Shown piece by piece: positions 2,445 to 18,226 of a DNA stretch of 64,000 nucleotides. Each line of letters opens with the position of its first letter. The first letter of the stretch is position 1. Both the position numbers and the translations under genes were made by a program. Origin of the DNA: Blastomussa wellsi (lineage: Eukaryota > Cnidaria > Anthozoa > Scleractinia > Plerogyridae). The stretch spans positions 10,910,981 to 10,974,980 of the forward strand of contig OX393573.1 in the NCBI GenBank assembly GCA_947652115.1, given 5' to 3'. The notes beneath the pieces were generated by a model. The model searched no databases. It was not told where the DNA came from and was given only the letters and a program-made list of their open reading frames with translations.

Positions 2445-2561
2445 TTTTATTTGTATCGTTGATACAAACACAGGTACGCCAAACGTTATAGACGCACGCG
2501 GTCAAAGTATCAGCCAAGGAGTTCACAATGGTGTCGCCTTTGCCAACTTTAAGGCCCACGA
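2445..2561 (+). CDS. PAN/EGF-type host gene, 5' half of exon split by the Polinton
   Basis: This frame reads ...GVAFANFKAH and stops at the element border inside a histidine-glutamate codon pair. On the far side of the 15.7 kb insertion (from 18227) the same frame continues EFSYLNITSL... without loss of a base once one copy of the 6-bp duplication is removed. A splice acceptor is proposed at 2443-2444 (TTTCGATTTAG after a pyrimidine-rich tract). The upstream exons, including the signal peptide, were not found. The domain is a cysteine-containing PAN/Apple-like fold that ends in an EGF module, so a secreted or surface protein is likely. The allele is disrupted in this assembly. Continuity is seen directly; the domain name rests on cysteine spacing. 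Confidence 0.7.
2556..2561. repeat. target site duplication, left (CCACGA)
   Basis: CCACGA directly precedes the left terminus and recurs at 18221-18226 directly after the right terminus. Six base pairs is the duplication length known for Polinton integrases. The first base of the element is ambiguous by one position because the duplication ends in A. Confidence 0.9.
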
Positions 2562-2827
2562 CACACATAACACTGGGTGGTTCTGGCGCATGGATTTTTT
2601 TGGGTTTGAGTGGGGGATGACGTTTTGGTTTACGCATCCCGGCTCACCAGCTCGCCGGCTCGCCGGGATGCGTAAACCAAAACGTCATCCCCCACTCAAA
2701 CCCAAAAAAATCCATGCGCCCAGAACCACCCAGTGTTATGTGTGTGTGGAATAAACATGGCAAAAACCACTGCGCATAAGAGGAGGCTGCACGCCTTCAA
2801 ATGGAAAACGGGGGCACAGCGCGGCCA
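2562..2827 (+). repeat. left terminal inverted repeat, with terminal palindrome
   Basis: Inverted copy of 17954-18220, essentially identical over about 266 bp. The outer part (2562-2746) is itself a palindrome: arm 2562-2643, an 18-nt GC-rich loop 2644-2661, and arm 2662 to about 2746. The two arms differ by one base (TGGCGC outside, TGGGCGC inside). A single strand could fold into a hairpin. Beyond 2827 the similarity to the right end weakens but continues up to the first start codon (2916), where both ends share TATATAGAACATGG. Confidence 0.93.
2747..2759 (+). promoter_or_regulatory. AATAAAC motif abutting start codon
   Basis: GGAATAAACATGG places AATAAAC directly before the ATG at 2757. 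The same motif occurs, as CAATAAACAAAACATG, before the genes starting at 5326 (-) and 11250 (+). The copy in the right TIR precedes the ATG at 18024 (-). It is proposed as an element-specific promoter or transcription start signal. Confidence 0.45.
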
Positions 2828-2912
2828 AAAATCAATGGGGCAACTGGAGAGGAAACTCAAATTTCACATTTTGGCTCAGGAATTATTTGAAGACATGCGC
2901 GCACATATATAG
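2757..2912 (+). CDS. small basic protein starting inside the left TIR
   Basis: A 51-residue ORF beginning MAKTTAHKRRLHAFKW. The first 23 or so residues are rich in Lys, Arg and His and lie inside the TIR. They are therefore identical to the start of the ORF at 18024-17839 on the other end of the element. The C-terminal half diverges from that ORF after the TIR identity ends. The stop codon overlaps the TATATAG box of the next gene, whose ATG is only 4 nt downstream. The AATAAAC motif before the ATG matches other genes of the element, which favours it being expressed. No family was recognised; a nucleic-acid-binding role is possible from charge alone. Confidence 0.4.
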   Translation: MAKTTAHKRRLHAFKWKTGAQRGQKSMGQLERKLKFHILAQELFEDMRAHI

Positions 2913-2915
2913 AAC

Positions 2916-3173
2916 ATGGTCAAAAACCTCCCACCCGAAATTCGTGAGATGATATTGAAAGAATTAATTAAAATCAAGATCCAAGAGAAATGGGATCTGG
3001 GTTTTTTTGAAGTTCATTGTGAAATGAGAATGCACCCATTTTGTGAAAAAAATCAACGCATCACAAAAGTTACGTCATGCGGGAAAGTTTGTAGTTTCAG
3101 GAAAATTGATTTGTGCAACCTGTGTTTAAAAAACGGAAAGAGGCATATTATCGGCCGCCCTGTCTTTCACTGA
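2916..3173 (+). CDS. small F-box-like, cysteine-rich protein
   Basis: 85 residues. The N-terminus (LPPEIREMILKELI, residues 5-18) resembles the first helix of F-box domains. The rest carries six cysteines (35, 43, 55, 59, 67, 70), including CxxxC and CxxC pairs that could bind zinc. The start is set by the TATATAGAACATGG context, which is the same 14 nt found at the polymerase start on the other end. The function is unknown; a host ubiquitin-ligase adaptor is a guess from a short motif. The 200 nt after the stop contain no convincing gene. Confidence 0.55.
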   Translation: MVKNLPPEIREMILKELIKIKIQEKWDLGFFEVHCEMRMHPFCEKNQRITKVTSCGKVCSFRKIDLCNLCLKNGKRHIIGRPVFH

Positions 3174-3373
3174 AATTTCACAATGTTTTTTCGTCCGCTT
3201 CACGCATCGCCTCAACAACTTGTTGAGCTATCTGTCTGACATCATTCAGCCAAACTGGAGAAGAAAGTTCCGCAAAAATAACGAAAAGCATTTGAAATAT
3301 CGTGATCATTTTGAGTTATGCAGTCAACCTTTAATTATACTTAAAGATATTTTTTTTGTTTTTCCCTCAAACT

Positions 3374-4048
3374 TCAGTTCAAATTTGCAGTGCTTGGCGC
3401 CGCGAGTTTTCTCATAAGCTGTTCTTGAAGCTCTTTTTTTATCTTTTCAACATCAGGCAGTTTACTTAAAGATGGTTTTTTTGTGAGCTTTGCTCGTACC
3501 TTTTCTTTTAACTCATTGTACCGTTCCAATTCAGAAAGAATAATCTGAAACTCAGAATCACTAATGCGATTATCAATTAAAGCCTTGGAAACCAGCTTGT
3601 CAACACTCGCACGTTTTGCAAGGCCAAGAGTAACAATCTCCTGATGTTTTGACATTTTTTTGTCAAGTTTTTTTCCAAAAAGAATCAAAATGGAGGAAGA
3701 AACAGAGAAAAAGCCACCCACAACACCTAAGGGTATAGCAACGGGTATCCCAATACCTGTTAGAGCAGACGCAAGTCCAGCACTAGAAAAAACAGCGCTG
3801 AGTCCGCCAAGACCGCCGGAAATCCAGTTAACAGCCGTTTTAGTGCGTTTAAATTTTTTTCGAACAAGCCTATAGTGGTCAACCTCTTGAGTCAACTTTG
3901 CAGCGATTTCGTTCACCTTTCCAAGGCGAAAGTCTTGGGGCATTTGTTGAGTCATTTGCAAAGACTCATGGCCTTCTATAACAGGGTATATCCTGCTTTG
4001 TTCAACATAAGCCGGAGCGCTCGGTAATACGTTTGATTCGCAAGACAT
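3374..4048 (-). CDS. conserved Polinton protein with glycine-rich hydrophobic core
   Basis: About 224 residues from the ATG at 4048; an upstream in-frame ATG at 4078 would add 10. After a polar N-terminus there is a basic helix (RLVRKKFKRTK). A long Gly/Ala/Ile-rich hydrophobic stretch of about 45 residues follows (GGLGGLSAVFSSAGLAS...), then a charged C-terminal helical region (ISDSEFQIILSELERY). I recognise this architecture from Polinton-like elements of cnidarians, where its function is unsettled. A membrane-active virion protein is plausible from the amphipathic core. The start overlaps the end of the truncated minor capsid paralogue in another frame (46 nt from 4048). Last gene of the left - strand block. 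Confidence 0.65.
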   Translation of the reverse strand: MSCESNVLPSAPAYVEQSRIYPVIEGHESLQMTQQMPQDFRLGKVNEIAAKLTQEVDHYRLVRKKFKRTKTAVNWISGGLGGLSAVFSSAGLASALTGIGIPVAIPLGVVGGFFSVSSSILILFGKKLDKKMSKHQEIVTLGLAKRASVDKLVSKALIDNRISDSEFQIILSELERYNELKEKVRAKLTKKPSLSKLPDVEKIKKELQEQLMRKLAAPSTANLN

Positions 4049-4592
4049 TTGAATCAAAATTGTAAGAGATTTTTTCATACGGTTTGCCTCTCACATCGAA
4101 TCGAGCCAAAATACTTGATCTTTTTCCATCGAGAAAATTCTTTTCTTTGTCAACAAGGTCGCAGTGAATAAAATAAGTAGACAGGCAGTGTTTTTTGTTG
4201 AATGTGAACCCTGATAAAGTTTCTCCAATATCAAACAGTTTGTCAAATTCCTCGCTGAAATTTATACCAACTCGCCTAAATTTAGAATTTTGAAGAATCA
4301 GCACGCCCGCGGGCGTGTCGGCATCTGTAAAATTTATGTAGTCGTATATTTGTAAGGCTTTCTTTAAAGCTTCAACAAAAGTCTCAATGGTGTAAAAACC
4401 GGGATGTAAATTAGTCACAAATTCTCTATAATTTTGCTCTTTATCTATTAACGTGACCGTTCCACCCTTAAAATTAAACCACGAGTTGTAAAGCGAACAG
4501 CTTAAAAGCCTGATATACTTTGGCTTCGTAATTGGATAGTCGAAATTAACAGTGTAGTCGTTTGAAGGAGCTTTGAACGTGAGCACAACCAT
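4002..4592 (-). CDS. probable minor capsid (penton-like) protein, C-terminally truncated paralogue
   Basis: 196 residues, paralogous to its upstream neighbour at 4664-5326. Both start MVV.T..APSNDYTV.FD, and both share KPKYIRLL.CSL.NSWFN and STYFIHCDL. The copy stops after the segment equivalent to FDVRGKP and lacks the last 35 or so residues of the neighbour, including the VNSLTISV...PLTFVLEI strand pair. Its final codons overlap the start of the next - strand gene. The promoter-like TTTATATAAAAATGG lies directly at the ATG. Minor capsid (single jelly-roll penton) is an inference from the all-beta character and the presence of the family in Polintons. Confidence 0.55.
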   Translation of the reverse strand: MVVLTFKAPSNDYTVNFDYPITKPKYIRLLSCSLYNSWFNFKGGTVTLIDKEQNYREFVTNLHPGFYTIETFVEALKKALQIYDYINFTDADTPAGVLILQNSKFRRVGINFSEEFDKLFDIGETLSGFTFNKKHCLSTYFIHCDLVDKEKNFLDGKRSSILARFDVRGKPYEKISYNFDSNVLRIKRITERSGLC

Positions 4593-4606
4593 TTTTATAT
4601 AAAAGA
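4593..4606 (-). promoter_or_regulatory. TATA-like box at start codon
   Basis: On the - strand CTTTTATATAAAAATGG places a TATATAA box 3 nt before the ATG at 4592. This is the same spacing class as other genes in the element. Confidence 0.45.
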
Positions 4607-4663
4607 AAATATATTCAATTAAATATTTTAAACAAAAATTTGTCTGTCGAAGTTATTTCAAAT

Positions 4664-5326
4664 TCAAGAGGTAATCTCCAAAACGAAAGTGAGTGGCATC
4701 CCATTGAAATCGAAAGGTTCACCATTCTCATCTTTGACTGAAATAGTCAAACTGTTTACCTCTCGTCTTTTCGAAGTGGCACGAACATGCTGTGGCTCTG
4801 ACTGATAAAAAACTTTATCCCAAGGTTCACCTTTTATATCAAAGTTGGCAAGAATGGTGGATGGTTTTCCATTCAACTGATTTTCTTGATGGTCAATCAA
4901 GTCACAATGGATGAAGTACGTTGAAGGGGAGTTCAGTTTTTTTGAAAACAATAACGGAAAGAATGGTGGTAAATTTCCGACACCAAGAAGAGAGCTCAAA
5001 TTTTCATCAATTTCAAGGTTTTCCAATTTTGTGTTGTAGACAAACATTTGACCATAGGGTGTGTTGATTTCTGCTTTTAAGGTGTCACTGTCCGGCAAAA
5101 GACCATTTTCAATTTTACTTGCCAAAGATTTCAAGGTGTAATGGCCCGGTAAAAAGATGATGGTTTTGTTCTTTGTTTTCGATTTAAGTCTGCCCACTTT
5201 TTTCAGGTTAAACCACGAATTTGGAAGCGAGCAGTTCAAAAGCCTGATATACTTTGGCTTTGGAATTGGACGGTCGAAATAAACAGTGTAGTCGTTTGAA
5301 GGTGCGATGATTGTGTGCACAACCAT
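4664..5326 (-). CDS. probable minor capsid (penton-like) protein
   Basis: 220 residues, predicted mostly beta. The C-terminus (VNSLTISVKDENGEPFDFNG...PLTFVLEI) is a beta-strand pattern I associate with a conserved capsid-associated protein of Polinton and adintovirus elements, best explained as the single jelly-roll vertex protein. Full length compared with the shorter paralogue immediately downstream (4002-4592), which points to tandem duplication. It is divergent from the + strand gene at 5370, and the 43-nt gap must hold both promoters. The 16-mer CAATAAACAAAACATG at its start is identical to the one at the + strand gene at 11250. Confidence 0.6.
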   Translation of the reverse strand: MVVHTIIAPSNDYTVYFDRPIPKPKYIRLLNCSLPNSWFNLKKVGRLKSKTKNKTIIFLPGHYTLKSLASKIENGLLPDSDTLKAEINTPYGQMFVYNTKLENLEIDENLSSLLGVGNLPPFFPLLFSKKLNSPSTYFIHCDLIDHQENQLNGKPSTILANFDIKGEPWDKVFYQSEPQHVRATSKRREVNSLTISVKDENGEPFDFNGMPLTFVLEITS

Positions 5327-5339
5327 GTTTTGTTTATTG
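5327..5339 (-). promoter_or_regulatory. AATAAAC start-proximal motif
   Basis: The - strand reads CAATAAACAAAACATG into the ATG at 5326. The identical 16 nt occur at 11237-11252 (+) before another gene of this element, and a shorter version (GGAATAAACATGG) occurs in both TIRs. Confidence 0.5.
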
Positions 5340-5369
5340 AAGAAAAAATATTTTGTTTAAATAATCGCA

Positions 5370-6872
5370 ATGCAAGGAGAGTACAGTGATGATTTTGCAA
5401 AATATCTTAGCAGAGTGAGAAATAAATCAAGACATGGCACTTCAGAAAGCAAATCTCCCAGCCAAGATGTGAAGAAAGCACCGGTCAGCAAACCACACAC
5501 CCAAGAAGTGGAAAAAACACCTGTTGTGAAGAAAAAACCTGTTGTGGAATACATTGACGGTTTTCCAAAATGGCTTACGCAAATCAGTGAAAAAGAAGAC
5601 TTGCCAATTCCAGCGGTGCCATTCCACGAAGCGGCCCCCAGTTTGAAGAAAATATTCAACAATGACGTGAACATATATGTGACACCGGATTGGTTCTTTA
5701 CCACGCGGTTCCGAGAGGTATTTCAAAAAACAAAGCTGCCTCTGGACCAATCGCCTGGAGAGGATGGCGCTGACGAGGTGAGGCATTGGCTGGCAACGCC
5801 TGACATGAAATATTGGCCACAGCAACTGAATTTTGCCACCTGGTGCGCGACCACGGGCTGCGGAATTTCACGGGATATTTTTGATGAAGAGCACACATCT
5901 TTGGAACTGCCACCGCAAGTCAGGGCATTTTTTGTTTTCCACGTGTACTTCACGGTCAGACGGATTTTGTATCAGCTCGGAGGCCCCCAAAACATTTTCG
6001 CGTTGCCGGGTGATCCAGCATTTACCCCGAGAAACAATCCTTATGATGTTGCTTCGTACGGAAGGATTTGCCATGAATTTGGGATCGAGGTTACGAATGA
6101 CTTCCGCTTCACGCCCGGCAGCGGGACGTTTCATAATTGGGCAGGCGGGCCGCATTACAAACGCCACCCAACAAGCGTCGCATATAACCAATACGACTGG
6201 TTTTGCGCGAACCATGCCGAAGGGCTGACACCAGCCGGCTTGAGCCGAATAAACCAGTCGATCGAGGCTTTCGTGTACTGCGTTCTCGGCGCCCAAGTGG
6301 ATCAAAGAAGCAGCATCCAGGGCACTGGAGGCCGAGCGCGTGAGGTCCAAAGCCAGTTTCTTCACCTGTTTGAAGGCGCAGTGATACAGCCAGATTTGTC
6401 AGCGTCTGTTCAAAGATACCAACTTGCCATTGACGAGGCGAAAGTCAGGCTGAACCTTGCTTTGTGCCCGGGCGCATGGCTGATGCCAGGCTACATGGTG
6501 ATCAACACAGAAAGCGTTATGGGCTACAACAACTTCCTCAAACAAGCTGTGGCGGGGATGAAACTTGGAATAAACAACCAGATCAACAAGGACAAAAAAA
6601 CAGTGACCCATCAACCCATGGATGGAGAGAAATCAAAATACAACCCACCAAGCAGCCACCCTTCGAACCCAATTCACAAAGCGGCCAAAGCTGAAAGCAA
6701 AAAAGATCTGGAGCCTTCTGCCAAAACACCTGCAACAGGGGTGCGGGGTTCACCCCGCGCACAAACGGTTGAAACAGCCAGCACGGACAGTGAGGCTCAT
6801 GACACGAACAAAACGGCTCTAATAGTTGGCGTGGTCGCACTTGCGGGTTTGGTGTTTTTGGCGTCCCGCTAA
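5370..6872 (+). CDS. large conserved Polinton protein with C-terminal membrane anchor
   Basis: 500 residues. The N-terminal 70 or so are Lys/Ser/Pro-rich and probably disordered. A long globular middle contains NNPYDVASY, DFRFTPGSG, GLTPAGLSRINQSIEAF and VINTESVMGYNN. A low-complexity polar linker follows (residues ~395-475). A single hydrophobic segment ends the protein (TALIVGVVALAGLVFLASR). I recognise the middle region from other Polinton-like elements, but no biochemical function is known to me. A tail-anchored virion or entry-associated protein is possible. The last 4 nt overlap the stop end of the convergent gene 6869-8116. Confidence 0.65.
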   Translation: MQGEYSDDFAKYLSRVRNKSRHGTSESKSPSQDVKKAPVSKPHTQEVEKTPVVKKKPVVEYIDGFPKWLTQISEKEDLPIPAVPFHEAAPSLKKIFNNDVNIYVTPDWFFTTRFREVFQKTKLPLDQSPGEDGADEVRHWLATPDMKYWPQQLNFATWCATTGCGISRDIFDEEHTSLELPPQVRAFFVFHVYFTVRRILYQLGGPQNIFALPGDPAFTPRNNPYDVASYGRICHEFGIEVTNDFRFTPGSGTFHNWAGGPHYKRHPTSVAYNQYDWFCANHAEGLTPAGLSRINQSIEAFVYCVLGAQVDQRSSIQGTGGRAREVQSQFLHLFEGAVIQPDLSASVQRYQLAIDEAKVRLNLALCPGAWLMPGYMVINTESVMGYNNFLKQAVAGMKLGINNQINKDKKTVTHQPMDGEKSKYNPPSSHPSNPIHKAAKAESKKDLEPSAKTPATGVRGSPRAQTVETASTDSEAHDTNKTALIVGVVALAGLVFLASR

Positions 6873-8116
6873 CTCTGTTTTTTGGTCAAGCGCTCAATCA
6901 AAAAGGCGACAACAGCCAAAATCACAAGCCAGGCGTGCTCAGCCAGAAACCCGAGGACCTTACCAGCAGTTGTGAAAAGAAAAGAAACAATCGAGCCAAG
7001 GAGACCTGGAAGGACGGACAATATTTTTTTACCGAGGTCTTTTAGCCCGTTTCCCAAAGCTTTGCCGAATGCTTTGACAGCATTGACAACAGGTTTCGTT
7101 AAAAGCTTTACGATTTCCATGATGAGAATACCGGCGGCAATTGAGATCGCTGTCACCGTGAAACCGTATTTTTTGAAGACATTTTTGATTTTTTCTCTGA
7201 CTCTTTCACGGAAAGAAAGCCTTTCAAGGTCTCTTTCTCTTTCAGCCTCGATTTGATTTTCTTCATTCACGAGCCGCTCAACGTTTTCACGGGCGTGCTC
7301 TCTTTCATCAGACGGGGCATTTTCATCATTAACGATTTCTTTTTGCTTTTCTTTTTCTTGTTGTATTTCTTTTTCTTTTTCTGTCCTTTGTTCTTCATTT
7401 TTTTCAAATTCTTGAAGGGGGATCGATTCAAAATCAATCGACTCGTAATCATTGTTTTCCAACCGTTCAAGTTCTCGCTGGAGATCAGTCCGTTCTGCAA
7501 TTTGTCTTTTTGCTCTTTCTCGGGCTTTTTCTCTTTCTGTTGGGCTTTGCTTTTCATCGTCTGCAAATTTTTTATTTTCATAAATGTCTTGTGACAGTGT
7601 TCCAATTTTTTCATCGATTGTTTCTCTTCGACTTTTCCCAAGTTCACGAGTTATTTCTTTTGGAAGTGCAGGATTTATCCGGAATTTATTCGTTTTTGTG
7701 TCTCTTGTTGTTAAAAAATATGTTGTTGTTTTCACACCTTTTTTGGTGGCTCTAAATAAACCGACTTTCACCCTATTGTTTTCCATTCGGACATTAAGAT
7801 CTTCCAACTTTGCAAATGGAAACTCTTTTTTAAGAAAATCATTAGCAACCATGATTGTTGTCAAATCGTTTTTTGGAGGATCAGGCTTAGGATCAGGCAG
7901 ATCTTCTTCGATATAAGAGGTTTCTGCAGTGGAAGAACTCCTTGACCTTTCCCTCAGACGTTTCAGGCGATCTCTCATTTCTTGTTCTTCAGGAAAACCG
8001 GAATCCCCGTCGCCATGATCAAGATGTTCATATTTCTCATCATCTTTCTCAGCATCTTTCTCATGATCATCATCATGTTCCAAAAGAGGGTCTTTTTCTT
8101 CTTCCATCATTGCCAT
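6869..8116 (-). CDS. conserved Polinton protein: acidic/coiled-coil with C-terminal membrane segments
   Basis: 415 residues. A highly acidic N-terminus (DDDHEKDAEKDDEKYEHLD) is followed by an arginine/serine patch, a small folded region (residues ~85-150), and a long Glu/Lys/Arg coiled coil (~165-300). The C-terminus is strongly hydrophobic (~315-410), with two or three likely membrane passes (ISIAAGILIMEIVKLL; FLAEHAWLVILAVVAFLI) separated by a Gly/Lys segment. I recognise this layout from cnidarian Polintons; the role is unknown. It is the only - strand gene in the centre of the element. It converges on 5370-6872 with a 4-nt overlap, and its promoter region faces that of the capsid gene. 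Confidence 0.65.
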   Translation of the reverse strand: MAMMEEEKDPLLEHDDDHEKDAEKDDEKYEHLDHGDGDSGFPEEQEMRDRLKRLRERSRSSSTAETSYIEEDLPDPKPDPPKNDLTTIMVANDFLKKEFPFAKLEDLNVRMENNRVKVGLFRATKKGVKTTTYFLTTRDTKTNKFRINPALPKEITRELGKSRRETIDEKIGTLSQDIYENKKFADDEKQSPTEREKARERAKRQIAERTDLQRELERLENNDYESIDFESIPLQEFEKNEEQRTEKEKEIQQEKEKQKEIVNDENAPSDEREHARENVERLVNEENQIEAERERDLERLSFRERVREKIKNVFKKYGFTVTAISIAAGILIMEIVKLLTKPVVNAVKAFGKALGNGLKDLGKKILSVLPGLLGSIVSFLFTTAGKVLGFLAEHAWLVILAVVAFLIERLTKKQS

Positions 8117-8175
8117 TGCGAAATATAAATTCTATTTATTTTCAATTTAAATAAAAATGTGCAGCTTTCAATACC

Positions 8176-9465
8176 ATGTATGTGCAAACAGAAGTTGACG
8201 GAAGAAGAGTGGAACGTGCGGTGCAAACAAACCTTCATCCAGAGCACAGCCAAAAAACTGGCCTCGCGATGAAAGCCGAGCGCGTGGTCAATCGCATCAC
8301 TTTTGATCGCAGCGAAGCCAACCCCGGGGAGACCTTATATGTTTACGTGCCCAAGCTGGATCAGAACGAGGTTCTCGTGCCAGGCACGCTCGCACTGGTC
8401 TTCAAAATCGACTTGGCGGGAGGGGACGCTGACAACTTCCTCGTTCAAAACGTCACCCGCGCCCTGGTCGATAAACTGCATGTGAAGTTCGGCGCGGAAA
8501 CACTGCAGGACACGGATGGATATGACATCTACAAGATCTGGGAGGACCTTTTTCTCTCGCAGGAGGAGCGGGACGACATGCTGCTCGAGGGCATCCAGTC
8601 TGAAGACCTCTGCAAGATCCGCTCAGACTCGGGAGACAAGAAAACCTCGGGTGTTGCCAAAGAAAACGCGCTGGAAAAGGTTTACGGGAAAAAATACCGG
8701 ATCCGCCTGGACCACTCAATACTGACCGACCACGGCGTCTTTTACCCCCAAGCGCTCCTCCACGACCTCCTGTTTCAGCTGAAGCTCGCGCCGGCCTCGC
8801 AGGTTGTCAAAGGCTCTGACCCCGATAAACTGAAATACAAGCTGACAAACATCCAGCTCGAGTTTGAAACAATCAGAAGCAAGACCTTGGCGGACGAGGC
8901 TCGCAGCGTTTACACCGCGGGAAAGGGGTTCAAATACGACCATGTGGTGCGGCCCGAGGTGGTCAGCTTCAAAAAAGAAGTGGCCTCAAGCGTGACCATC
9001 AAATTTAACGCCCAAAAAAGGTCCCTGAAAGGCCTTCTTCTCCTTTTCGTTGAGCCTTACACTGCAGGAACCCGTGATTCAGAAAAGTACATTAACCCGT
9101 CCCTGAAGAAAGTCGTTGTCACGGTGAACGGCTCGACCAACAAGCTCTTCAACAACGGCCTCGGAATCACGGATACTTGGGCCGAAGTTGACCGCTTTTT
9201 CGGAAAGAAAGCCCAAAAAACAAAGCACATGAATCCGGTAAAGTTTTTCACCGAAGACAGGTTCGGGCTTCTGATTGATTTGCGCACATCGGGGGATCCA
9301 ACGCTGCATGGAAGCGGCACGCGGCTTGTGAACACAACACATGGAGTCCAGCTTGAAATCGAGCGGGACCTCATTGGCGCAGGCGATGTGAAATGCCACA
9401 TCTTTGCAATTTCGGACGCGCAAATAGACATTAAAAATCAGCAATTAGTTTCAGTGTTGCACTGA
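8176..9465 (+). CDS. probable major capsid protein (double jelly-roll hexon)
   Basis: 429 residues. Conserved features of the Polinton major capsid family are visible: GETLYVYVPKLDQ early, NFLVQNVTRALVDKL, DGYDIYKIWEDLFLSQEERD, LDHSILTDHGVFYPQAL and a C-terminal LEIERDLIGAGDVKCHIFAISD. Length and all-beta character fit a double jelly-roll protein on the short side of the family. It is encoded 7 nt upstream of the packaging ATPase, the usual pairing in this virus lineage. The gene is markedly richer in G/C-ending codons than the - strand genes on its left. The start ATG follows TTTCAATACC. The assignment relies on family resemblance and position; a fold prediction would settle it. Confidence 0.72.
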   Translation: MYVQTEVDGRRVERAVQTNLHPEHSQKTGLAMKAERVVNRITFDRSEANPGETLYVYVPKLDQNEVLVPGTLALVFKIDLAGGDADNFLVQNVTRALVDKLHVKFGAETLQDTDGYDIYKIWEDLFLSQEERDDMLLEGIQSEDLCKIRSDSGDKKTSGVAKENALEKVYGKKYRIRLDHSILTDHGVFYPQALLHDLLFQLKLAPASQVVKGSDPDKLKYKLTNIQLEFETIRSKTLADEARSVYTAGKGFKYDHVVRPEVVSFKKEVASSVTIKFNAQKRSLKGLLLLFVEPYTAGTRDSEKYINPSLKKVVVTVNGSTNKLFNNGLGITDTWAEVDRFFGKKAQKTKHMNPVKFFTEDRFGLLIDLRTSGDPTLHGSGTRLVNTTHGVQLEIERDLIGAGDVKCHIFAISDAQIDIKNQQLVSVLH

Positions 9466-11227: not shown

Positions 11228-11249
11228 ATATTTACACAATAAACAAAAC

Positions 11250-11477
11250 ATGAAAATTGACGGTGCCCAAGCTGTTGCATCAGGCGTTGGTATTTTTGCA
11301 ATCACCTTTGTGTGGTTCAAACTTGCCTTCGCCTTTGCTGATACAATCATGCTTCTCTGGGATGCACCATTCATTGAAGAAGATGAAGATGAAGATGAGG
11401 AATTTCCTGTGTTGCCAATTTACCCTGACGAGAAACCGCCAAGCTATGCAGATTCACTGGCTGATGAAGATGATTAA
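11250..11477 (+). CDS. 75-aa membrane protein with acidic tail and PPSY motif
   Basis: Starts at the ATG after CAATAAACAAAAC. An N-terminal hydrophobic segment (GVGIFAITFVWFKLAFAFA, ~12-30) is followed by an acidic run (EEDEDEDEE) and a C-terminal EKPPSYADSL with PPSY at residues 63-66. PPxY is the binding site for WW domains of Nedd4-type ubiquitin ligases. It is used as a late domain by budding viruses, and a PPSY occurs in adenovirus protein VI. That link is an inference here. The gene lies in the run of small + strand genes downstream of the ATPase. Confidence 0.6.
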   Translation: MKIDGAQAVASGVGIFAITFVWFKLAFAFADTIMLLWDAPFIEEDEDEDEEFPVLPIYPDEKPPSYADSLADEDD

Positions 11478-11506
11478 TTTCTTTTGAACGTTTATTTTTT
11501 TTTCTT

Positions 11507-11517
11507 TTATACCAAAC
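11507..11517 (+). promoter_or_regulatory. T-rich tract and TATA-like box at start codon
   Basis: A run of T residues from about 11489, then CTTTTATACCAAACATG, leads into the ATG at 11518. Confidence 0.4.
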
Positions 11518-11739
11518 ATGCCTGAAAACAATCTTGTAAAAAACGCCATGGAGGCCGCGACTCTCGTTGGCCTCTCTGCTGGCATTGGGTGGGCTGTCAA
11601 AAAAGTGTTCAAGAGAAGTTTTACAGATGACCCTTCAGATTCTATCGAAAACTTCGCAATGTTCACTGGTGTGATGACGGGCAGCATCTGGCTCAAGAAG
11701 TACCTGGAAGACCAGAAAATCCTCCCGACCAACGTTTGA
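11518..11739 (+). CDS. conserved 73-aa two-helix membrane protein
   Basis: Residues ~10-27 (AMEAATLVGLSAGIGWAV) and ~44-60 (FAMFTGVMTGSIWLKKY) are hydrophobic, joined by a basic then polar loop. It ends EDQKILP. I recognise this short family from many metazoan Polinton-like elements, where it sits in the same small-gene cluster. The conservation argues for a real virion or membrane component despite the size. Function unknown. Confidence 0.65.
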   Translation: MPENNLVKNAMEAATLVGLSAGIGWAVKKVFKRSFTDDPSDSIENFAMFTGVMTGSIWLKKYLEDQKILPTNV

Positions 11740-11781
11740 ACACCCAAAAATCATTTGAAAAAATGGCGGCAATTTATAATC

Positions 11782-12201
11782 ATGGCAAGTATCGCAATTA
11801 TGGTTGGCGGTGCTTTGGTGAACGCAGTGGCTTTCATCGGCGGCAGTTATCTGGCGAAGGCTTTGGATGGTGATGGCCAGGCCTCGCGTGAAGAAATAGA
11901 GCGCCACGACCGAGCTATGGAGGAGTATCAAGCTGCGTACAACAAATTCGTGCGCGACCGCACCAAACGTCTCGACTGGATTGAAACAAACGAGCGCATG
12001 AAAGCTGACGCCAAGCAGGATTTCACAAACACTGACTACGCTTTAAAACTTTACAACCAGGCGCATCCTGAAGAGGCTCCTCTAAAAGAGCCCAAATTTT
12101 CGGATTTTTATCAACCAAGCCAGCGGCAAAAAAATGGTGAACTCATGTTCGTCGGGGCCGGGGCTCTCGCTTTGGGCTACGCTGCTTTCCGGTTCTTTTA
12201 A
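11782..12201 (+). CDS. conserved small membrane protein with coiled coil
   Basis: 139 residues from the ATG at 11782, chosen because TTTATAATCATGG precedes it; the frame is open a little further upstream but without an ATG. It has an N-terminal hydrophobic segment (MASIAIMVGGALVNAVAF), a charged helical middle (REEIERHDRAMEEYQAAY..RDRTKRLDWI), the motif FSDFYQPSQRQKNGELMFVG, and a C-terminal hydrophobic segment. I recognise the SDFY..S..QKNGEL signature from other Polinton-like elements; function unknown. Its stop codon is immediately followed by the promoter block of the next gene. Confidence 0.68.
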   Translation: MASIAIMVGGALVNAVAFIGGSYLAKALDGDGQASREEIERHDRAMEEYQAAYNKFVRDRTKRLDWIETNERMKADAKQDFTNTDYALKLYNQAHPEEAPLKEPKFSDFYQPSQRQKNGELMFVGAGALALGYAAFRFF

Positions 12202-12222
12202 ACTTTTTTTTACCTCTTTTAT
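12199..12222 (+). promoter_or_regulatory. promoter block, copy 1
   Basis: TAAAC, a T run, ACCTC, then TTTTATATGG. The same order of elements recurs at 12371-12397 before the integrase, with only a few differences. In both cases the TATA overlaps the start codon region. Confidence 0.5.
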
Positions 12223-12366
12223 ATGGATTTCTACTGTGTGTATGAGAAGAAGATCACCCCCAACGTTCGTGGGAGTGAAAGACTCGGAAAAACAAAAAAT
12301 GGGCAAACCTTTCTGAAAGTCAAATGCGCCTCTTGCGGGAAAACCAAAACAAGATTCATCTGCTAA
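12223..12366 (+). CDS. 47-aa zinc-ribbon-like protein, first Cys pair incomplete
   Basis: Starts MDFYCVYEKKITP and ends VKCASCGKTKTRFIC. It resembles the tiny zinc-ribbon protein (FYC..C...T...CxxCG..K.RF) common in Polintons and large DNA viruses. The second knuckle (CASC) is intact. In the first, Tyr-Glu replaces the usual second Cys region, so four-ligand zinc binding is doubtful unless the C-terminal Cys substitutes. It sits between the small membrane protein and the integrase, each with the same promoter block. Confidence 0.6.
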   Translation: MDFYCVYEKKITPNVRGSERLGKTKNGQTFLKVKCASCGKTKTRFIC

Positions 12367-12370
12367 CATT

Positions 12371-12394
12371 TAAACTTTTTTTCACCTCGTTTAT
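12371..12394 (+). promoter_or_regulatory. promoter block, copy 2 (integrase)
   Basis: TAAAC, a T run, CACCTC, then GTTTATATGG. Near-duplicate of 12199-12222 and the best evidence for a conserved start-proximal promoter in this element. Confidence 0.5.
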
Positions 12395-13393
12395 ATGGAC
12401 ACCAAACTCGCGAAGATATACTACAGCCCTGGCGGTTATTGGAAAGGCATTGCCGCCATCAAAAAACTGGCCGCGGCTGCAAACGTCCCGGAAGACACCG
12501 CAAAAAAGTGGTTGATCCAGCAAGCCCTCTGGCAGATATTCCTTCCGGCGCCGAAGCATATACCTCGACCGAAATTCGACGTGTCCTTACCCAACAAGGT
12601 CCACCAGGCGGACCTTCTTTTTTTGCCTCACGATAAACTGCCTCGCGGTCGCAAAGTCTGGAAATACGCGCTGAACGTTGTCGACGTGGCCAGCCGTTTC
12701 AAAGAGTCCGAACCCTTGACCTCGAAAAATTCTGATGAGGTTGCCCAGGCTTTTCAGAAAATTTACAAGCGCGGCCCTTTGAAATGGCCTGAAATGTTGC
12801 AAGTTGACCCTGGGCGCGAATTCATGGGCGCCGTGACGAAAGTCATGGAAAATCACAAAACTTTCATCCGGCGCGGGCGCGTCAACATTCACCGCGATCA
12901 GGCCATTGTTGAACGTTACAACCGCACCCTTGCCGAACGCCTGTTCGGTCACCAGTATGCCGTGGAAATGCGGCTGCCTGAGGGCCAGCGGTCCAGGGCA
13001 TGGGTGAAAAGACTTCCTGAAGTTGTTTCAGCTTTGAACAACGAGGTGACCAGCCTCATCGGAAAGAAACCCGCTGTTGCAATCAAAGAGAAATCTGTTT
13101 TTTCGAAACCTTCGACTGCTTATCACAGACCTGTTGGGAAGGATGAAAAAATCCTGCCATATCTTGTTCAGGTTCGCCATCTTTACGAACCTGGTGAGCT
13201 TGAAGGGGGGAAAAAAAGAGCCACGGATCCGATTTGGTCTTTGAAAGTTTTCACCATTGAAAAGGTTTTACAAAAACCGGATCAGCCCGTTCTGTACTAT
13301 TTGCATGATGGACCCAAGCGCGGTTTTGTGCGTGAAGAGCTGCAGATTGTGCCTAAAAACACCGTTCTCCCGCCGGCCAGCGTGGACAGTTGA
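12395..13393 (+). CDS. Polinton retroviral-type integrase (DDE)
   Basis: 332 residues. An N-terminal helical region (KKLAAAANVPEDTAKKWLIQQALWQIFLP) precedes the rve core. Catalytic acids are visible as D73 (QADLLFLP), D138 (VDPGREFMG) and E173 (QAIVERYNR), with 34 residues between the last two. The C-terminal part (VRHLYEPGELEGGKKRATDPIWSLKVF) matches the SH3-like tail of this family; no chromodomain is seen. It would insert the linear element DNA and produce the 6-bp duplication seen at the borders. All catalytic residues are present and the frame is open, so it is probably active or recently active. Confidence 0.93.
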   Translation: MDTKLAKIYYSPGGYWKGIAAIKKLAAAANVPEDTAKKWLIQQALWQIFLPAPKHIPRPKFDVSLPNKVHQADLLFLPHDKLPRGRKVWKYALNVVDVASRFKESEPLTSKNSDEVAQAFQKIYKRGPLKWPEMLQVDPGREFMGAVTKVMENHKTFIRRGRVNIHRDQAIVERYNRTLAERLFGHQYAVEMRLPEGQRSRAWVKRLPEVVSALNNEVTSLIGKKPAVAIKEKSVFSKPSTAYHRPVGKDEKILPYLVQVRHLYEPGELEGGKKRATDPIWSLKVFTIEKVLQKPDQPVLYYLHDGPKRGFVREELQIVPKNTVLPPASVDS

Positions 13394-13416
13394 ATAAACA
13401 AATGAAATTTTGAAAA

Positions 13417-13641
13417 ATGGGCCGTGGACGCAACGGTGTTCTCATTCAAGCTTCAACCATTGGGAAAAGAAGGACAAGAAGTGACGTTAACCAAAAATAT
13501 TCTGATGTTTTTGGCAGAAACAACACCGTTAAAAATCCAGAAGAAATTTTTCTTGACCCTGGAGTTTTGAATTATTTGCGCAGTTTGCGCCCGAGCGAGA
13601 TTGTTAAAACTGTTCTTCCAGCCACTCCCCGAGCGCTGTGA
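13417..13641 (+). CDS. small basic protein of unknown function
   Basis: 74 residues, beginning MGRGRNGVLIQASTIGKRRTRSD. It is basic at the N-terminus and polar afterwards. It starts 23 nt after the integrase stop. Its 3' end overlaps the 3' end of the convergent polymerase gene (from 13604). No family recognised. The start context (GAAAAATGGG) lacks an obvious TATA box, so this is less certain than its neighbours. Confidence 0.4.
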   Translation: MGRGRNGVLIQASTIGKRRTRSDVNQKYSDVFGRNNTVKNPEEIFLDPGVLNYLRSLRPSEIVKTVLPATPRAL

Positions 13642-13930
13642 CAGCTTCTGTGTCCAGCAACAGCGCTTCCAAATCCTCTTCTGTTAGTGGGGCATCTTTG
13701 AAACCGTATGCTTTTGTGTGGATCCCGTCATCTGCAATCCAGCGTTTTGAGTCAAACGCACACAGTGAAATCTTGTTCACGTGCATTCCGTAAATTTCAT
13801 GCCCCTCGCTCCGCAGAATGTTCATTCCATGCTTCAGCTGTTTCTTCTCGCCAAAAATCATTTCACGGTACTGCTCGTGGGAAATGTTTTTCTTGACGAC
13901 ACACTTTTTGACCCCCTTCGCCTTTTTGAT
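13604..13930 (-). CDS. polymerase C-terminal segment, displaced frame
   Basis: Residues such as NISHEQYREMIFGEKKQL, RSEGHEIYGMHVNKISL and FDSKRWIADDGIHTKAYG are typical of the extreme C-terminus of Polinton family B polymerases. They lie in a different frame from the main 1,330-codon ORF. The shift falls at a run of ten T (ten A in the gene) at 13930-13939. A one-base length change of this run accounts for it. Either the gene is broken here, the run is miscalled in the assembly, or the full product needs slippage. The main ORF instead ends 20-odd codons later in an unrelated tail. Confidence 0.8.
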   Translation of the reverse strand: MKKAKGVKKCVVKKNISHEQYREMIFGEKKQLKHGMNILRSEGHEIYGMHVNKISLCAFDSKRWIADDGIHTKAYGFKDAPLTEEDLEALLLDTEAVTALGEWLEEQF

Positions 13931-16900
13931 TTTTTTTTTCGTCCCCTCGGAGGATGGAATACATTTTTGACCTGAGACAGATGGCTTCCGCGATGGGTGT
14001 CCCCGCGCATTCATCTTTCATTTTGCCCAAGACTTTTTTGTTCTCGTCTGAGTTAAGTGGATGGTCTTGCGGGTAATCACTCAGGTCATACATTTCTTTC
14101 GTTGTCGCGATGTCTTTGTAAACGTCTTCTGTTTCGATCTCAAGCAGAAGACTGTCCGTGTCCGTGTAAACAAGTTCACATTTTGATCCGTACCGCTTTT
14201 TCAGGTGGTTGTAGAAAAAGTCGTACATGAGGATCTTGCTGTTGTCCAAGATCGTCATGCCCGTGTACACCGGTTTGTTCAGCACCAGCTTCCCTTTGTG
14301 CATGTGGATCCCCGCCATGTTGTTTGTGAATTGGGCGAACCTTGAGAACAACGGACTGGCAACAAATTTTCTGACTTTTTCTTTTTCTTCACTTTTCACG
14401 ATTTTGATGTCCGTGCGCTTCCGCAGGTTCTCCATCGTTTTCCCGAAAACCGAGTTGTTCATCAGTTTGTAAAAGTCTTTTTCAAAAGCGCTTTTTGATC
14501 TTTTGCGGAAATTGGTGTTCATCATGATGTACGGTTTCATCCACGGTGATTGCTCGAACTCCAGAACTTTGTGGACCTTTTTCAGCCTCATCCCCTGTTG
14601 CAGATAAAACTGCAAGTTCCTGTAGTGCACGACGTAGTTGTTTTTGTCTTCCAGTGTCAGCAGCAGTTTCTTTTCTTTTGGTGTTTTGATTTCCAGTTCG
14701 TCCATCAGACGGTGCTGGTAGTCTGACATGTCCTCTTTTTTTACCGCCTTTTTTTCCGGCGCCAGCGGATAACTGTTGTGCTCTTCATGCAACTCCTCCG
14801 GATATTCGAGGTCAACCTCAAGAATCCAGCCGGTTTTGGCGTCTTCTTTTTTCTTCAAAATTTCTTCTTCCGTGGGCAGCACGCTTCTCCATTTGAATCC
14901 TCTCACGGGCATTGGCTGGCACATGGCCCAGCCGTAAAGGTTGTTCGCGTCGAGATACATAATAAATTTTTTCGGTTTGGTCTCATCGTAGCCCTCCACT
15001 TCTGGGTTGTTGGCTCTGACATACCTTTTGCTGACATTTGAGATCCCGCCGCGCAGCCCCCTTTCCACAAAAAGATGCTTGTCAATGTCCGTCAATAGCT
15101 CCAGCTCAATGCCAGACATTTTCAGAAGCGCGTCCCAACTCAGCCCTGGCGATGTGAAATAATTCGCCGGGTCCAGCCCGTACTGCTCTTGACACAGATC
15201 CCTGAAATTTTCAAAAACATCCGCCAGCAGTGCCACGTCTGTTTTCACATACAAGTCATGATAATCTCCCAGGTTTTTGCAGTCAAAGGCTTCCCACACT
15301 TTCTGCGCGTGCGCATATTCAGCGTCTGAAATGGCTTCGTCGTTCAGTTTGCTGTAAAACAGCTTTTTGTGCGGCAGTTTTGTCTCTTCGAACCTCTCCC
15401 ATGAGTCCATGTACTCATATGGATAGATTCCTTTTTGAAACAACAACTCAACCTGGGGGCTGTCCACTGTTGTTTTGGTGATTTTCAACTTTTCTTGGGG
15501 TGTTGCTTTCACAAGCGCGTTAAGGCTTCCTTGCATGAAATTCAGACTGTCTATGAACTGCAGATTCCCCATGGAAAATGTGATGTACTTTTCCATGTTG
15601 TTGGCCACACATTTCACATCCTTTTCCTGCTGCGCCATCGCCTGCATCAGGTGGTGCGCGTCGTAACCTCTCAGGTTGTGAAATACAACTGGGATTTTGA
15701 AAAATTTGGGCTTCAGTTTCAGTTTTAAATTGCAATCGTTGTGTGCGGCCCCCCGGAACTTGCCTGTCACATGGCAATGGTCTTTCACCGCGTCTCTGTA
15801 TATTGGTTGGATCAACGGTTTTTTGCAGAATTGGCACTTTTCTTGTTTGTCGGCTGCTTCTTTTTGCTTTTTGTCCAACCTTTTCATGCAAAGGCACGCA
15901 ACCCTTTTTTGCACAAACCAGAAACATTTTTTGTGCACCTGTCCCAAATATTTTTCTTTTTTCCATGCAGGCAGTGAGTCAAGGAAATTTTCTTTCGTTA
16001 GACTTTTGCCACAAATGTGACAATCTTTTGCGTTGTTGAAATTTTCCCAATCTTCCGGTTCCATTCTTATTGGTTCTTTCTCTTCCACACTTTCTCTCAG
16101 ATTTTGTTCTTCTTGCACAATGTCGCTCAGAAAATTTGCCACTGCATTTTGCCCTCTGAAAACTTTTGAATTCATTATTTCTCCATCACTTCTCACACAT
16201 ATCCAGGCGTATCCACACGCTTCGTGGATTTCAGTTTTTTCTGTGTAACTTTGTTCTTGATTTTCACACTCGCGGTATTCAATCTTTTTTACAAGCGCCT
16301 CAAAATCTGCATAAATCACGAAAGGCGCCTTCATCTGTTTTTGGAAATTTTGATACTTCAGGATGTTTTTTCCTTTTTCCGGCATTTCGATCACTGTTGG
16401 CCTGCCATTCAAACCTTCACATTGTTTTTGATGCTCCTCCAACTTTTCCGCTGTTCTGAAATGTGTAATACACATATTGCAAAAGTGTTTTTTTCCACAA
16501 TGTTTTGTCTGATCATAAACCAATGAGCTCATTCGTTTGACCCAGCAGTAATGATTGTTCTCCCCATCCACAATAATAATCAGGTTGATCCTTGGCACTT
16601 CATGACTTTTCTCGCTGAACCATAAACCTCCCATGAAACAGTCTTTTTCTTTGTCCCAACCATATAAATTGATTGCCAGTTTTGGATTTTGTGCCTCAAG
16701 CTTTTTTATCTGTTTAATCGGTGTGGGGAAATCGATTCCCTTCCAATTGATTTTGTCATCATTGACAGGGTATTTGCTCGGCCTTTGCGCGTCCTTTCCC
16801 GCTGGGAAAAGTGCTGATCTCAACGCCCACTTCAGACATTCATTGTCCACGTTTTTCACGTTAACAATTGCTTTCTTTGCTGCAAGTTTTGGTGGAAGTG

Positions 16901-17855
16901 GCAACCATGTTCCTCCTTTCAGTGGTTCATATTTTGCAACATGCACATACACTTGTTTTATTTTTTCAAACACCATTTCTGAATTTTGAACTGAGACTTC
17001 CGTTTTGCTTTTTGATTCTTCAATAAATTCATCGAATTTTTCCGTGATCTCTTCTTCGTCAAATTTTTGGAAAATATACAGTTTACTTTTATAATACTGT
17101 TTGATTTCTCTCTTTTCATCTTTTGTTGAAAACTTTGTATCAAAAGAAAATAAGACTTTCACCATCCCCATCTCTTTCATCTCCTTTTTGAGCAGTTCAA
17201 TGAACTTTTCACGGTACTCTTTTGCAAAAACTAAAATATCCTTTGCAGCGGGGTTATAAAAACCTTTTGAATGGGGGTTCCAACGATCCTTGTTTTTTAA
17301 GTTAAGTTCTGATACCTGCATTGACCACACGTGAAGCCATCCTCGGAAATTTGTTTCTGCCAAAACAAATCTGTCGTGAATTTCTTTTCTCAGAAATCGA
17401 TTTTTCAGTCCTTGCAGTAAAATTTTCACATTTTGCAATGAAAGTCCAGGAAAATCATCTGATAAATTTCTTGCAATCTTTTCATATTCAACAGGGTCAT
17501 AATGGGTTTGGAAAAGTTTGACCCACTCTTCAACTTCTTTAAATTTTTCTCTTTTGCTTGTACCATTTTCAAATTGATTGACAAGATTTTTGATAAATCT
17601 TTCCAATCTTTCTTGCGTCAACCGGCCTGCTGCTCTCTCTCTTTCAACAACAGCTAATGCTCTTTCAATGACTGCATTATCTTCTTCTTCTTCCCTTCTT
17701 ACAAATTCATCAAAATTTTGAAAAAATTCAAAACGTTCTTCCTCAGGTAAAGGTTCTTCAATCACCCTTTGCCTGCGCAAATTTTCATTTTCAACTTGAA
17801 GCCTTCTGATTGCCTCTTCAAGAATAAGGTCATCATCATCACGTGCTGCTGCCAT
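13863..17855 (-). CDS. protein-primed family B DNA polymerase (pPolB), frameshifted near 3' end
   Basis: 1,330 codons to the stop of this frame. The N-terminal ~330 residues are charged and helical. A C2H2-like knuckle (CGKKHFCNMCITHFR) follows. Exonuclease motifs are IYADFE (D517), FHNLRGYDAH and KTDVALLADVF, with a second Cys/His cluster between the first two (DHCHVTGKFRGAAHNDC). Polymerase motifs are YLDANNLYGWAM (D969), KLMNNSVFGKTMENL and YTDTDS (1230-1235). All catalytic acids are intact. It replicates the linear element using a protein primer. The start is set by TATATAGAACATGG, shared with the left end. Base composition shifts from AT-rich (5' third) to GC-rich (3' half). The last conserved segment is in another frame (13604-13930). 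Confidence 0.95.
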   Translation of the reverse strand: MAAARDDDDLILEEAIRRLQVENENLRRQRVIEEPLPEEERFEFFQNFDEFVRREEEEDNAVIERALAVVERERAAGRLTQERLERFIKNLVNQFENGTSKREKFKEVEEWVKLFQTHYDPVEYEKIARNLSDDFPGLSLQNVKILLQGLKNRFLRKEIHDRFVLAETNFRGWLHVWSMQVSELNLKNKDRWNPHSKGFYNPAAKDILVFAKEYREKFIELLKKEMKEMGMVKVLFSFDTKFSTKDEKREIKQYYKSKLYIFQKFDEEEITEKFDEFIEESKSKTEVSVQNSEMVFEKIKQVYVHVAKYEPLKGGTWLPLPPKLAAKKAIVNVKNVDNECLKWALRSALFPAGKDAQRPSKYPVNDDKINWKGIDFPTPIKQIKKLEAQNPKLAINLYGWDKEKDCFMGGLWFSEKSHEVPRINLIIIVDGENNHYCWVKRMSSLVYDQTKHCGKKHFCNMCITHFRTAEKLEEHQKQCEGLNGRPTVIEMPEKGKNILKYQNFQKQMKAPFVIYADFEALVKKIEYRECENQEQSYTEKTEIHEACGYAWICVRSDGEIMNSKVFRGQNAVANFLSDIVQEEQNLRESVEEKEPIRMEPEDWENFNNAKDCHICGKSLTKENFLDSLPAWKKEKYLGQVHKKCFWFVQKRVACLCMKRLDKKQKEAADKQEKCQFCKKPLIQPIYRDAVKDHCHVTGKFRGAAHNDCNLKLKLKPKFFKIPVVFHNLRGYDAHHLMQAMAQQEKDVKCVANNMEKYITFSMGNLQFIDSLNFMQGSLNALVKATPQEKLKITKTTVDSPQVELLFQKGIYPYEYMDSWERFEETKLPHKKLFYSKLNDEAISDAEYAHAQKVWEAFDCKNLGDYHDLYVKTDVALLADVFENFRDLCQEQYGLDPANYFTSPGLSWDALLKMSGIELELLTDIDKHLFVERGLRGGISNVSKRYVRANNPEVEGYDETKPKKFIMYLDANNLYGWAMCQPMPVRGFKWRSVLPTEEEILKKKEDAKTGWILEVDLEYPEELHEEHNSYPLAPEKKAVKKEDMSDYQHRLMDELEIKTPKEKKLLLTLEDKNNYVVHYRNLQFYLQQGMRLKKVHKVLEFEQSPWMKPYIMMNTNFRKRSKSAFEKDFYKLMNNSVFGKTMENLRKRTDIKIVKSEEKEKVRKFVASPLFSRFAQFTNNMAGIHMHKGKLVLNKPVYTGMTILDNSKILMYDFFYNHLKKRYGSKCELVYTDTDSLLLEIETEDVYKDIATTKEMYDLSDYPQDHPLNSDENKKVLGKMKDECAGTPIAEAICLRSKMYSILRGDEKKNQKGEGGQKVCRQEKHFPRAVP

Positions 17856-18024
17856 GTTCTATATAAATGAGCGCACATTTCTTCAAATGAAAAATAATTC
17901 CTGGCGCAAAATGTGAAATTTGTGTTTCCTTGAAAGTTGCCAACAAGATTTTGTGGCCGCGCTGTGCCCCCGTTTTCCATTTGAAGGCGTGCAGCCTCCT
18001 CTTATGCGCAGTGGTTTTTGCCAT
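17839..18024 (-). CDS. small basic protein starting inside the right TIR
   Basis: 61 residues from the ATG at 18024. The first 23 or so residues (MAKTTAHKRRLHAFKWKT...) are identical to the ORF at 2757-2912 because both lie in the TIR. The rest differs, and the 3' end overlaps the polymerase start by 17 nt in another frame. The AATAAAC motif precedes the ATG. Both copies remaining open is suggestive, but the ORF is short and may be incidental. Confidence 0.35.
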   Translation of the reverse strand: MAKTTAHKRRLHAFKWKTGAQRGHKILLATFKETQISHFAPGIIFHLKKCALIYIEHGSST

Positions 18025-18220
18025 GTTTATTCCACACACACATAACACTGGGTGGTTCTGGGCGCATGGATTTTTTTGGGTTTGAGTGGGGGATGACGTT
18101 TTGGTTTACGCATCCCGGCGAGCCGGCGAGCTGGTGAGCCGGGATGCGTAAACCAAAACGTCATCCCCCACTCAAACCCAAAAAAATCCATGCGCCAGAA
18201 CCACCCAGTGTTATGTGTGT
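17954..18220 (-). repeat. right terminal inverted repeat, with terminal palindrome
   Basis: Inverted copy of 2562-2827. The outer ~185 bp (18034-18220) form the same near-perfect palindrome with an 18-nt GC-rich loop, and with the same single-base arm difference as on the left. Confidence 0.93.
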
Positions 18221-18226
18221 CCACGA
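18221..18226. repeat. target site duplication, right (CCACGA)
   Basis: Direct repeat of 2556-2561, adjoining the right terminus. Confidence 0.9.

What the first reader, a model, noticed from the sequence alone, without database searches (positions are those of the whole stretch)
2556..18226. A full-length, apparently young Polinton sits inside a coding exon
Both termini, a perfect 6-bp duplication and near-identical ~266-bp inverted repeats are preserved, and almost every ORF is open. Deleting 2562-18220 plus one CCACGA lets the host frame run from FKAH into EFSYLN with no base gained or lost. Exonic integrations should be removed by selection unless the gene is redundant, heterozygous or the insertion is very recent. 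This is an unusual natural record of a fresh insertion by a virus-like element.
Basis: partly seen in the sequence, partly recalled or inferred. Interest (0 to 1): 0.9.

Follow-up and report, generated by a model that had tools for sequence, protein, structure and literature searches.

The report
Young Polinton splitting a coral exon
A nearly complete 15.7-kb virus-like transposon (a Polinton) splits a protein-coding exon of an animal, probably a coral; it likely landed there recently, and because the same genome holds more than a hundred close copies of its integrase gene it is a clean example of a known process rather than a unique event.

Summary
The element is 2561-18220 (15,660 bp); its terminal repeats mirror each other without mismatch for 267 bp. 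The duplication is 5 bp (CCACG), not 6: all 42 ends of 21 paired copies begin with A, and 19 of 21 pairs match over 5 bp. One gene is interrupted: the polymerase frame changes near its C-terminus.

The exon claim is well supported. Joined over one CCACG, the halves give an open 306-nt PAN-like exon, the length seen in four paralogues. Both halves adjoin at 8 of 9 other left-half places. No empty allele of this locus was found.

It is less unusual than claimed: 121 integrase copies were scored (of 1793 candidates), 97-100% identical, 120 of 121 without internal stop, and mavirus-like elements in exons are in print (PMC8547959).

More unusual are the ends: the outer 185 bp of each repeat is a near-perfect palindrome whose arms co-vary between copies and whose loop was never seen flipped. 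With 5-bp duplication and ACACAC ends, this is a variant of the published Polinton pattern.

The parts
2561..18220 (.). Polinton-type element, 15,660 bp, outermost bases A...T
2556..2560 (.). target-site duplication CCACG, left copy
18221..18225 (.). target-site duplication CCACG, right copy
2561..2827 (+). left terminal inverted repeat (267 nt, mirror-identical to the right one)
17954..18220 (-). right terminal inverted repeat
2561..2745 (.). 185-bp palindrome (83-pair stem, 1-nt bulge, asymmetric loop) in left repeat
18036..18220 (.). 185-bp palindrome in right repeat
2474..2560 (+). host exon, left half (after CAG acceptor, by eye), including left target copy
18221..18446 (+). host exon, right half, up to GAA|GTATTA putative donor; PAN-like domain (PF00024 E=0.018, below cut-off)
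18787..18924 (+). next host exon, EGF-like domain (PF00008 E=7e-7), ending in a stop
13863..17855 (-). protein-primed DNA polymerase B ORF (1330 aa) with endonuclease VII-like stretch; frame lost near C-terminus
13604..14014 (-). C-terminal piece of the polymerase, in another frame (assigned by eye)
12395..13393 (+). integrase (rve E=3e-7, just below cut-off; 332 aa, open)
9473..10075 (+). A32-like packaging ATPase (PF04665, 35.6 bits, cut-off 22.8)
8176..9465 (+). predicted double-jelly-roll major capsid protein
   Evidence: low-confidence model
5370..6872 (+). widely shared 500-aa protein of unknown role, hydrophobic C-terminus
6869..8116 (-). 415-aa ORF, hydrophobic C-terminal segments, role unknown
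4664..5326 (-). 220-aa ORF, possible minor capsid/penton-type protein (by eye only)
4002..4592 (-). 196-aa tandem relative of the preceding ORF
3374..4078 (-). 234-aa ORF with hydrophobic segment, role unknown; lies in the variable left end
10098..10670 (+). 190-aa ORF, role unknown
10724..11227 (+). 167-aa ORF with repeats, role unknown
11755..12201 (+). 148-aa ORF, role unknown

Best explanation
This is a 15,660-bp Polinton-type element (2561-18220) that likely inserted recently, through its own predicted integrase, into a coding exon of a PAN-like/EGF gene and duplicated 5 bp (CCACG). Shown: the ends, the 5-bp duplication, the open 306-nt exon once the halves are placed side by side, uninterrupted paralogous exons, and more than a hundred near-identical integrase copies in the genome. 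Inferred: the element's polymerase copies the linear element; its integrase joins both 3' ends to target DNA with cuts 5 bp apart; host repair fills the gaps and makes the duplication. The host frame then reads from the left half into the TIR and meets a stop after 64 codons, so this gene copy would be disrupted. The insertion would be tolerated because paralogues exist, because it is heterozygous, or because that gene copy was already weakening (its splice donor differs from those of all four paralogues compared). The palindromic ends probably serve replication or integrase docking and are kept self-complementary by selection or by copying of one arm from the other.
For: TIR 267/267 mirror-perfect. 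5-bp TSD in 19 of 21 paired copies, 0 of 420 mismatched pairs. Gene set: integrase, A32 ATPase, polymerase, likely DJR capsid. Host exon 306 nt in window (flanks joined) and in 4 of 4 paralogues compared; NG86 dN/dS 0.26-0.29 against the three closest. Exon halves adjoin at 8 of 9 other left-half places. Young family: 121 scored integrases (window included), 97-100% aa identity, 120 of 121 without stop; integrase dN 0-0.0065 against dS 0-0.094 in 20 copies, which were picked as top protein matches, so dN is biased low. Closest copy among those compared: 1 mismatch + 1 gap in 2,196 and 2 mismatches in 1,771.
Against: No empty allele of this locus was found; paralogues are a proxy, and one of the 9 other left-half places lacks an adjoining right half. 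The polymerase frame is interrupted here, so this copy may not move on its own. The left end differs from the closest copy (92%, 55 gaps), so the whole element is not a simple recent duplicate of that copy. PAN_1 is below its Pfam cut-off. Lineage-polarised changes in exon A on the window branch are 11 nonsynonymous to 8 synonymous, which does not by itself show strong constraint.
Confidence: 0.9

Rival explanations
1. The insertion hit a gene copy that was already a pseudogene or dispensable paralogue, so the exon was not a functional coding exon when it was struck. (This adds to the main explanation rather than excluding it.)
For: Paralogues on the same contig. The splice donor in the window is GAA|GTATTA, while all four paralogues compared have GTAAGT. 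Window-branch changes in exon A are 11 N: 8 S.
Against: Exon frame fully open with no indel against four paralogues, pairwise dN/dS 0.26-0.29 with the closest three, downstream EGF exon open.
Confidence: 0.35
2. The junctions are an assembly artefact joining a repeat to unrelated host halves.
For: The family is highly repetitive, which can mislead assembly.
Against: A direct 5-bp duplication flanks it as in 19 of 21 copies; both halves map side by side onto the same paralogous exons.
Confidence: 0.03
3. The insertion is old and the identical TIRs are kept so by gene conversion.
For: 10 of 21 paired copies have no mismatch between their own TIRs, even copies whose TIR differs by about 10% from the window's.
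Against: Host exon halves remain open, the TSD is perfect, and the middle and right parts are 99.9% identical to the closest copy compared.
Confidence: 0.08

Closest known systems
Vertebrate Mavericks/Polintons (PMC8097293, passages read)
   Same: Integrase, polymerase, ATPase and capsid-type genes, long TIRs, 12.7-24.6 kb size range
   Different: They have 6-bp duplications and (AG)n or (AGT)n end motifs; here 5 bp and ACACACATAA ends with a 185-bp palindrome
Endogenous mavirus-like elements, EMALEs (PMC8547959, passages read)
   Same: Integrated virus-like elements with TIRs, no sequence-specific target found, 13 insertions in host exons, duplications mostly 3-5 bp
   Different: Virophages of a flagellate; dependence on giant viruses and different gene content are recalled
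Maverick repeats of stony corals (PMC12005156, passages read)
   Same: Mavericks make up 1.4-6.7% of three coral genomes
   Different: Only counted as repeats in the passages read; no ends, duplication length or exonic case seen there
Parvovirus-type terminal hairpins (recalled)
   Same: Self-complementary terminal palindrome with asymmetric loop
   Different: No flip/flop seen: loop in one orientation at each end where it was read; element with polymerase and integrase genes

Membership tests
Polinton/Maverick | protein-primed family B DNA polymerase | tested here: met
   120 listed relatives of the window ORF at 39-75% identity, several bearing PF03175 (e.g. P0212, 55% over the whole searched region). 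The window ORF itself gave no PF03175 match at E<=0.1. Exonuclease and palm motifs read by eye (recalled motifs).
Polinton/Maverick | retrovirus-like (rve) integrase | tested here: met
   rve E=3.1e-7, 31.0 bits, just under the 32.6 cut-off; IS481 model E=6e-14, 52 bits, far under its cut-off of 224
Polinton/Maverick | A32-type packaging ATPase | tested here: met
   PF04665, 35.6 bits against a cut-off of 22.8
Polinton/Maverick | double-jelly-roll major capsid protein | tested here: inconclusive
   Foldseek's top hits are largely major capsid proteins (best E 2e-11), but the model's mean pLDDT is only 54
Polinton/Maverick | adenain-type cysteine protease gene | tested here: inconclusive
   No protease match in Pfam among the 15 ORFs or ORF pieces of the element submitted; smaller ORFs were not searched
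Polinton/Maverick | long terminal inverted repeats | tested here: met
   267 bp mirror-perfect
Polinton/Maverick | 5-6 bp target-site duplication (range given in PMC8547959) | tested here: met
   5 bp in 19 of 21
Polinton/Maverick | exactly 6 bp duplication (as in PMC10045372 and, for vertebrates, PMC8097293) | tested here: not met
   5 bp in 19 of 21 (one of these, poly-T, also fits 6); one copy 6 bp, one none. Papers differ on whether 6 bp is required; I file it as a variant Polinton-type element by gene set and TIRs, not by this length.
Rolling-hairpin replicon (parvovirus-like) | flip/flop of terminal hairpins | tested here: not met
   Loop in one orientation at 34 of the 35 ends printed (the other lacks part of the loop) and at five more ends; four ends of the paired copies were not read for this

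The most novel reading that the evidence does not exclude
Coral Polintons of this family carry true hairpin telomeres: 185-bp palindromic ends whose arms are copied from each other during replication, so that the ends stay self-complementary without flipping, coupled to an integrase that cuts 5 bp apart. That would be a mode of end maintenance that I did not find described for Polintons.
Probability: 0.2. Interest if true: 0.65.

Novelty: new variant of a known kind. Interest (0 to 1): 0.42.

Why it matters
It gives a base-exact example of what a virus-like transposon does when it lands in a coding exon, inside a genome where the same family has multiplied so recently that nearly all scored integrase copies still have open frames. 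Such a genome lets the rate, target choice and fate of Polinton insertions be measured directly. The palindromic, co-varying ends and the 5-bp duplication give testable hypotheses on how these elements copy and insert their ends.

Tried and rejected
Six-bp duplication: rejected after comparing 21 paired copies. Parvovirus-like flip/flop of the hairpin ends: looked for and not seen. Relatives in IMG/VR: the capsid search and TIR-motif search found none. PDB sequence search with polymerase and integrase: no match. PHROGs gave only weak hits. Exonic insertion as a family habit: of 21 paired copies, only the window copy has a clear host exon. One other flank looks fibrinogen-like (E=0.001, below cut-off). 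By eye, two copies sit in other Polinton-like genes, and two sit in long open frames that look retroelement-like but gave only weak, unrelated Pfam matches. This is too few for a rate. A fold of the 500-aa protein could not be run. Dating in years was left out because I have no mutation rate from a call.

Literature: searches for palindromic or 5-bp-duplication Polintons, and 20, 32, 65, 73 and 80 for exonic or coral cases. I read listings, and passages of PMC8547959, PMC8097293, PMC2836005, PMC10045372, PMC12005156 and PMC12314368; of PMC11071308 the abstract and outline only. No listed title described palindromic Polinton ends, but the library is incomplete and most papers were seen only as listings.
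Full report
WHAT WAS CHECKED. The window lies at G000:C22:10910981-10974980 in a 367.8-Mb, 124-contig genome. The element's outermost bases are A2561 and T18220; counted from there the inverted repeats agree for 267 positions. The host side reads ...AAGGC-CCACG|ACACACATAA on the left and TTATGTGTGT|CCACG-AGTTC on the right.

FIVE BASES, NOT SIX. The sixth base can belong either to the duplication or to the element. Other copies decide. The TIR search scored 40 of 129 candidates. These belong to 23 copies, of which 21 could be paired, using the loci and the stretches. Two copies stayed unpaired because no second end was found in the stretch fetched. All 42 paired ends begin ACACACATAA. The flanks match over 5 bp in 19 of 21 pairs. 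One of these, in poly-T, also fits 6. Of the other two, one copy matches over 6 and one has no match. Among 420 mismatched pairings, none matches over 5. The published figures are 6 bp as the characteristic Polinton length (PMC10045372), 6 bp in intact vertebrate Mavericks (PMC8097293), and 5-6 bp for mavirus and Mavericks (PMC8547959); for all three I read passages.

THE HOST EXON. With one CCACG kept, the flanks give a frame open from the acceptor through FKAH-EFSYLN to a putative donor. In BLAST against seven paralogous loci each alignment runs across the junction; in the four whose junction I saw printed (L002-L005) there is no gap there. The 306-nt coding part has the same length in the window and in four paralogues, and the next exon (EGF-like) is also conserved. 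Pairwise dN/dS against the three closest paralogues is 0.26-0.29. Left-half and right-half searches of the whole genome put the two halves 1-15 bases apart at 8 of the 9 other left-half places, all on the same contig; the ninth has no adjoining right-half match. Six further right-half matches lie on C12. Only the window itself matched at 100%, so no empty allele or second haplotype of this locus was found in the assembly at the sensitivity used. One caution: the splice donor in the window differs from the GTAAGT of all four paralogues, and polarised changes on the window branch in exon A are 11 nonsynonymous to 8 synonymous, so this gene copy may already have been losing function.

HOW YOUNG. 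The two TIRs differ at 0 of 265 positions, but 10 of 21 copies show no mismatch (one of those with one gap), so this alone is weak. Against 20 other copies, the integrase-to-polymerase stretch is 91.2-99.95% identical; the closest, on C8, has 1 mismatch and 1 gap in 2,196 bases, and its right end has 2 mismatches in 1,771. Its left end is only 92% identical with 55 gaps, so copies look mosaic. Integrase dN is 0-0.0065 and dS 0-0.094 against the window. These 20 were the top protein matches, so dN is biased low, and I take the contrast only as a hint that protein sequence was held while copies spread. 121 of 1793 first-look integrase candidates were scored (window included); all show 97-100% identity, and 120 of 121 have no internal stop. 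Only the best candidates are scored, so the true spread is wider. In vertebrates, 134 intact elements were found in 17 species (PMC8097293, passage).

WHAT IS BROKEN. The polymerase ORF loses its frame near the C-terminus, and its last part lies in another frame. Of 20 other copies read over that stretch, 17 have a palm motif and a C-terminal motif in one frame without a stop between them, 1 (L062) has a stop between them, and 2 (L071, L075) have them in different frames. The test rests on short motifs, so single rows could be wrong. The closest copy is open. Whether the window's change is a real mutation or a consensus error cannot be told here.

THE ENDS. The outer 185 bp of each TIR folds as a stem of 83 pairs with one bulge and an asymmetric loop. 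In 23 copies (22 distinct rows), 98.0% of pair cells are standard and 9 pairs have changes on both sides against 3.3 +/- 1.0 in shuffles (0 of 500 reach it); slid controls reach at most 2. The shuffle control does not remove relatedness, and 62 of 83 pairs never vary. The arms are not perfect in every copy: up to 7 mismatches were counted in one. The loop has the same orientation at 34 of the 35 ends printed (the other, L049, lacks part of it) and at five more ends; four ends were not read for this. Constant orientation argues against parvovirus-style flip/flop. I infer a role in replication start, terminal-protein or integrase docking, with arms kept complementary by selection or templated copying; nothing here tests which.

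WHAT IT IS. By gene set (integrase, A32 ATPase, polymerase related to PF03175 carriers, and a capsid that Foldseek places with viral major capsid proteins on a low-confidence model) this is a Polinton-type element. Against that, the polymerase ORF itself did not match PF03175 and the integrase is just under the rve cut-off, and no protease gene was found among the ORFs searched. It departs from the published pattern in duplication length, end motif and palindrome. The exonic landing is real but has precedent (EMALEs, 13 in exons; PMC8547959, passages), and Mavericks are abundant in corals (PMC12005156, 1.4-6.7% of three genomes, passages).

VERDICT. A well-resolved, apparently young exonic insertion of a variant Polinton in a genome full of close integrase copies. 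It is valuable as a clean example and for its ends, and moderate in surprise.

Noticed in passing
2561-2745 and 18036-18220: Outer 185 bp of each TIR is a near-perfect palindrome, seen in all 23 copies aligned, with co-varying arms and a loop of fixed orientation where read.
   Followed up: yes
window 2561-4332 and 16450-18220 against copies in L010-L038: Copies look mosaic: the polymerase-side end is 98.5-99.9% alike in the 14 copies measured, while the other end ranges from about 85 to 99%; suggests recombination or swapping of left-end genes.
   Followed up: partly
13604-14014 and 13863-17855 (-): Polymerase frame change near the C-terminus; one other of 20 copies (L071) shows the same frame relation and no gap against the window, while the closest copy is open.
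   Followed up: partly
G000:C5:2991873-3022900: Two TIRs 31 kb apart with two integrase matches between them and a 5-bp duplication (CGATC) outside: a composite or nested pair of elements.
   Followed up: no
copies C2_9.8 and C2_9.36 (flanks in L029/L038 and L037/L035): By eye, elements inserted inside genes of other Polintons.
   Followed up: no
18144-18458 (+): The right TIR supplies an ATG in frame with the right half of the host exon, giving a 104-aa TIR-host fusion ORF.
   Followed up: no
4002-4592 and 4664-5326 (-): Two tandem related ORFs with an 85% identical 123-nt repeat at one end; the first is shorter and overlaps its neighbour.
   Followed up: no
18941-19305: Array of 33-bp repeats just downstream of the EGF exon.
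   Followed up: no
60932-64000 (+): Long ORFs that by eye resemble a DIRS-type retroelement (reverse transcriptase, then tyrosine recombinase-like).
   Followed up: no
26793-27248, 30800-31576, 48068-48823 (+): ORFs that by eye resemble exons of sugar-transporter genes.
   Followed up: no
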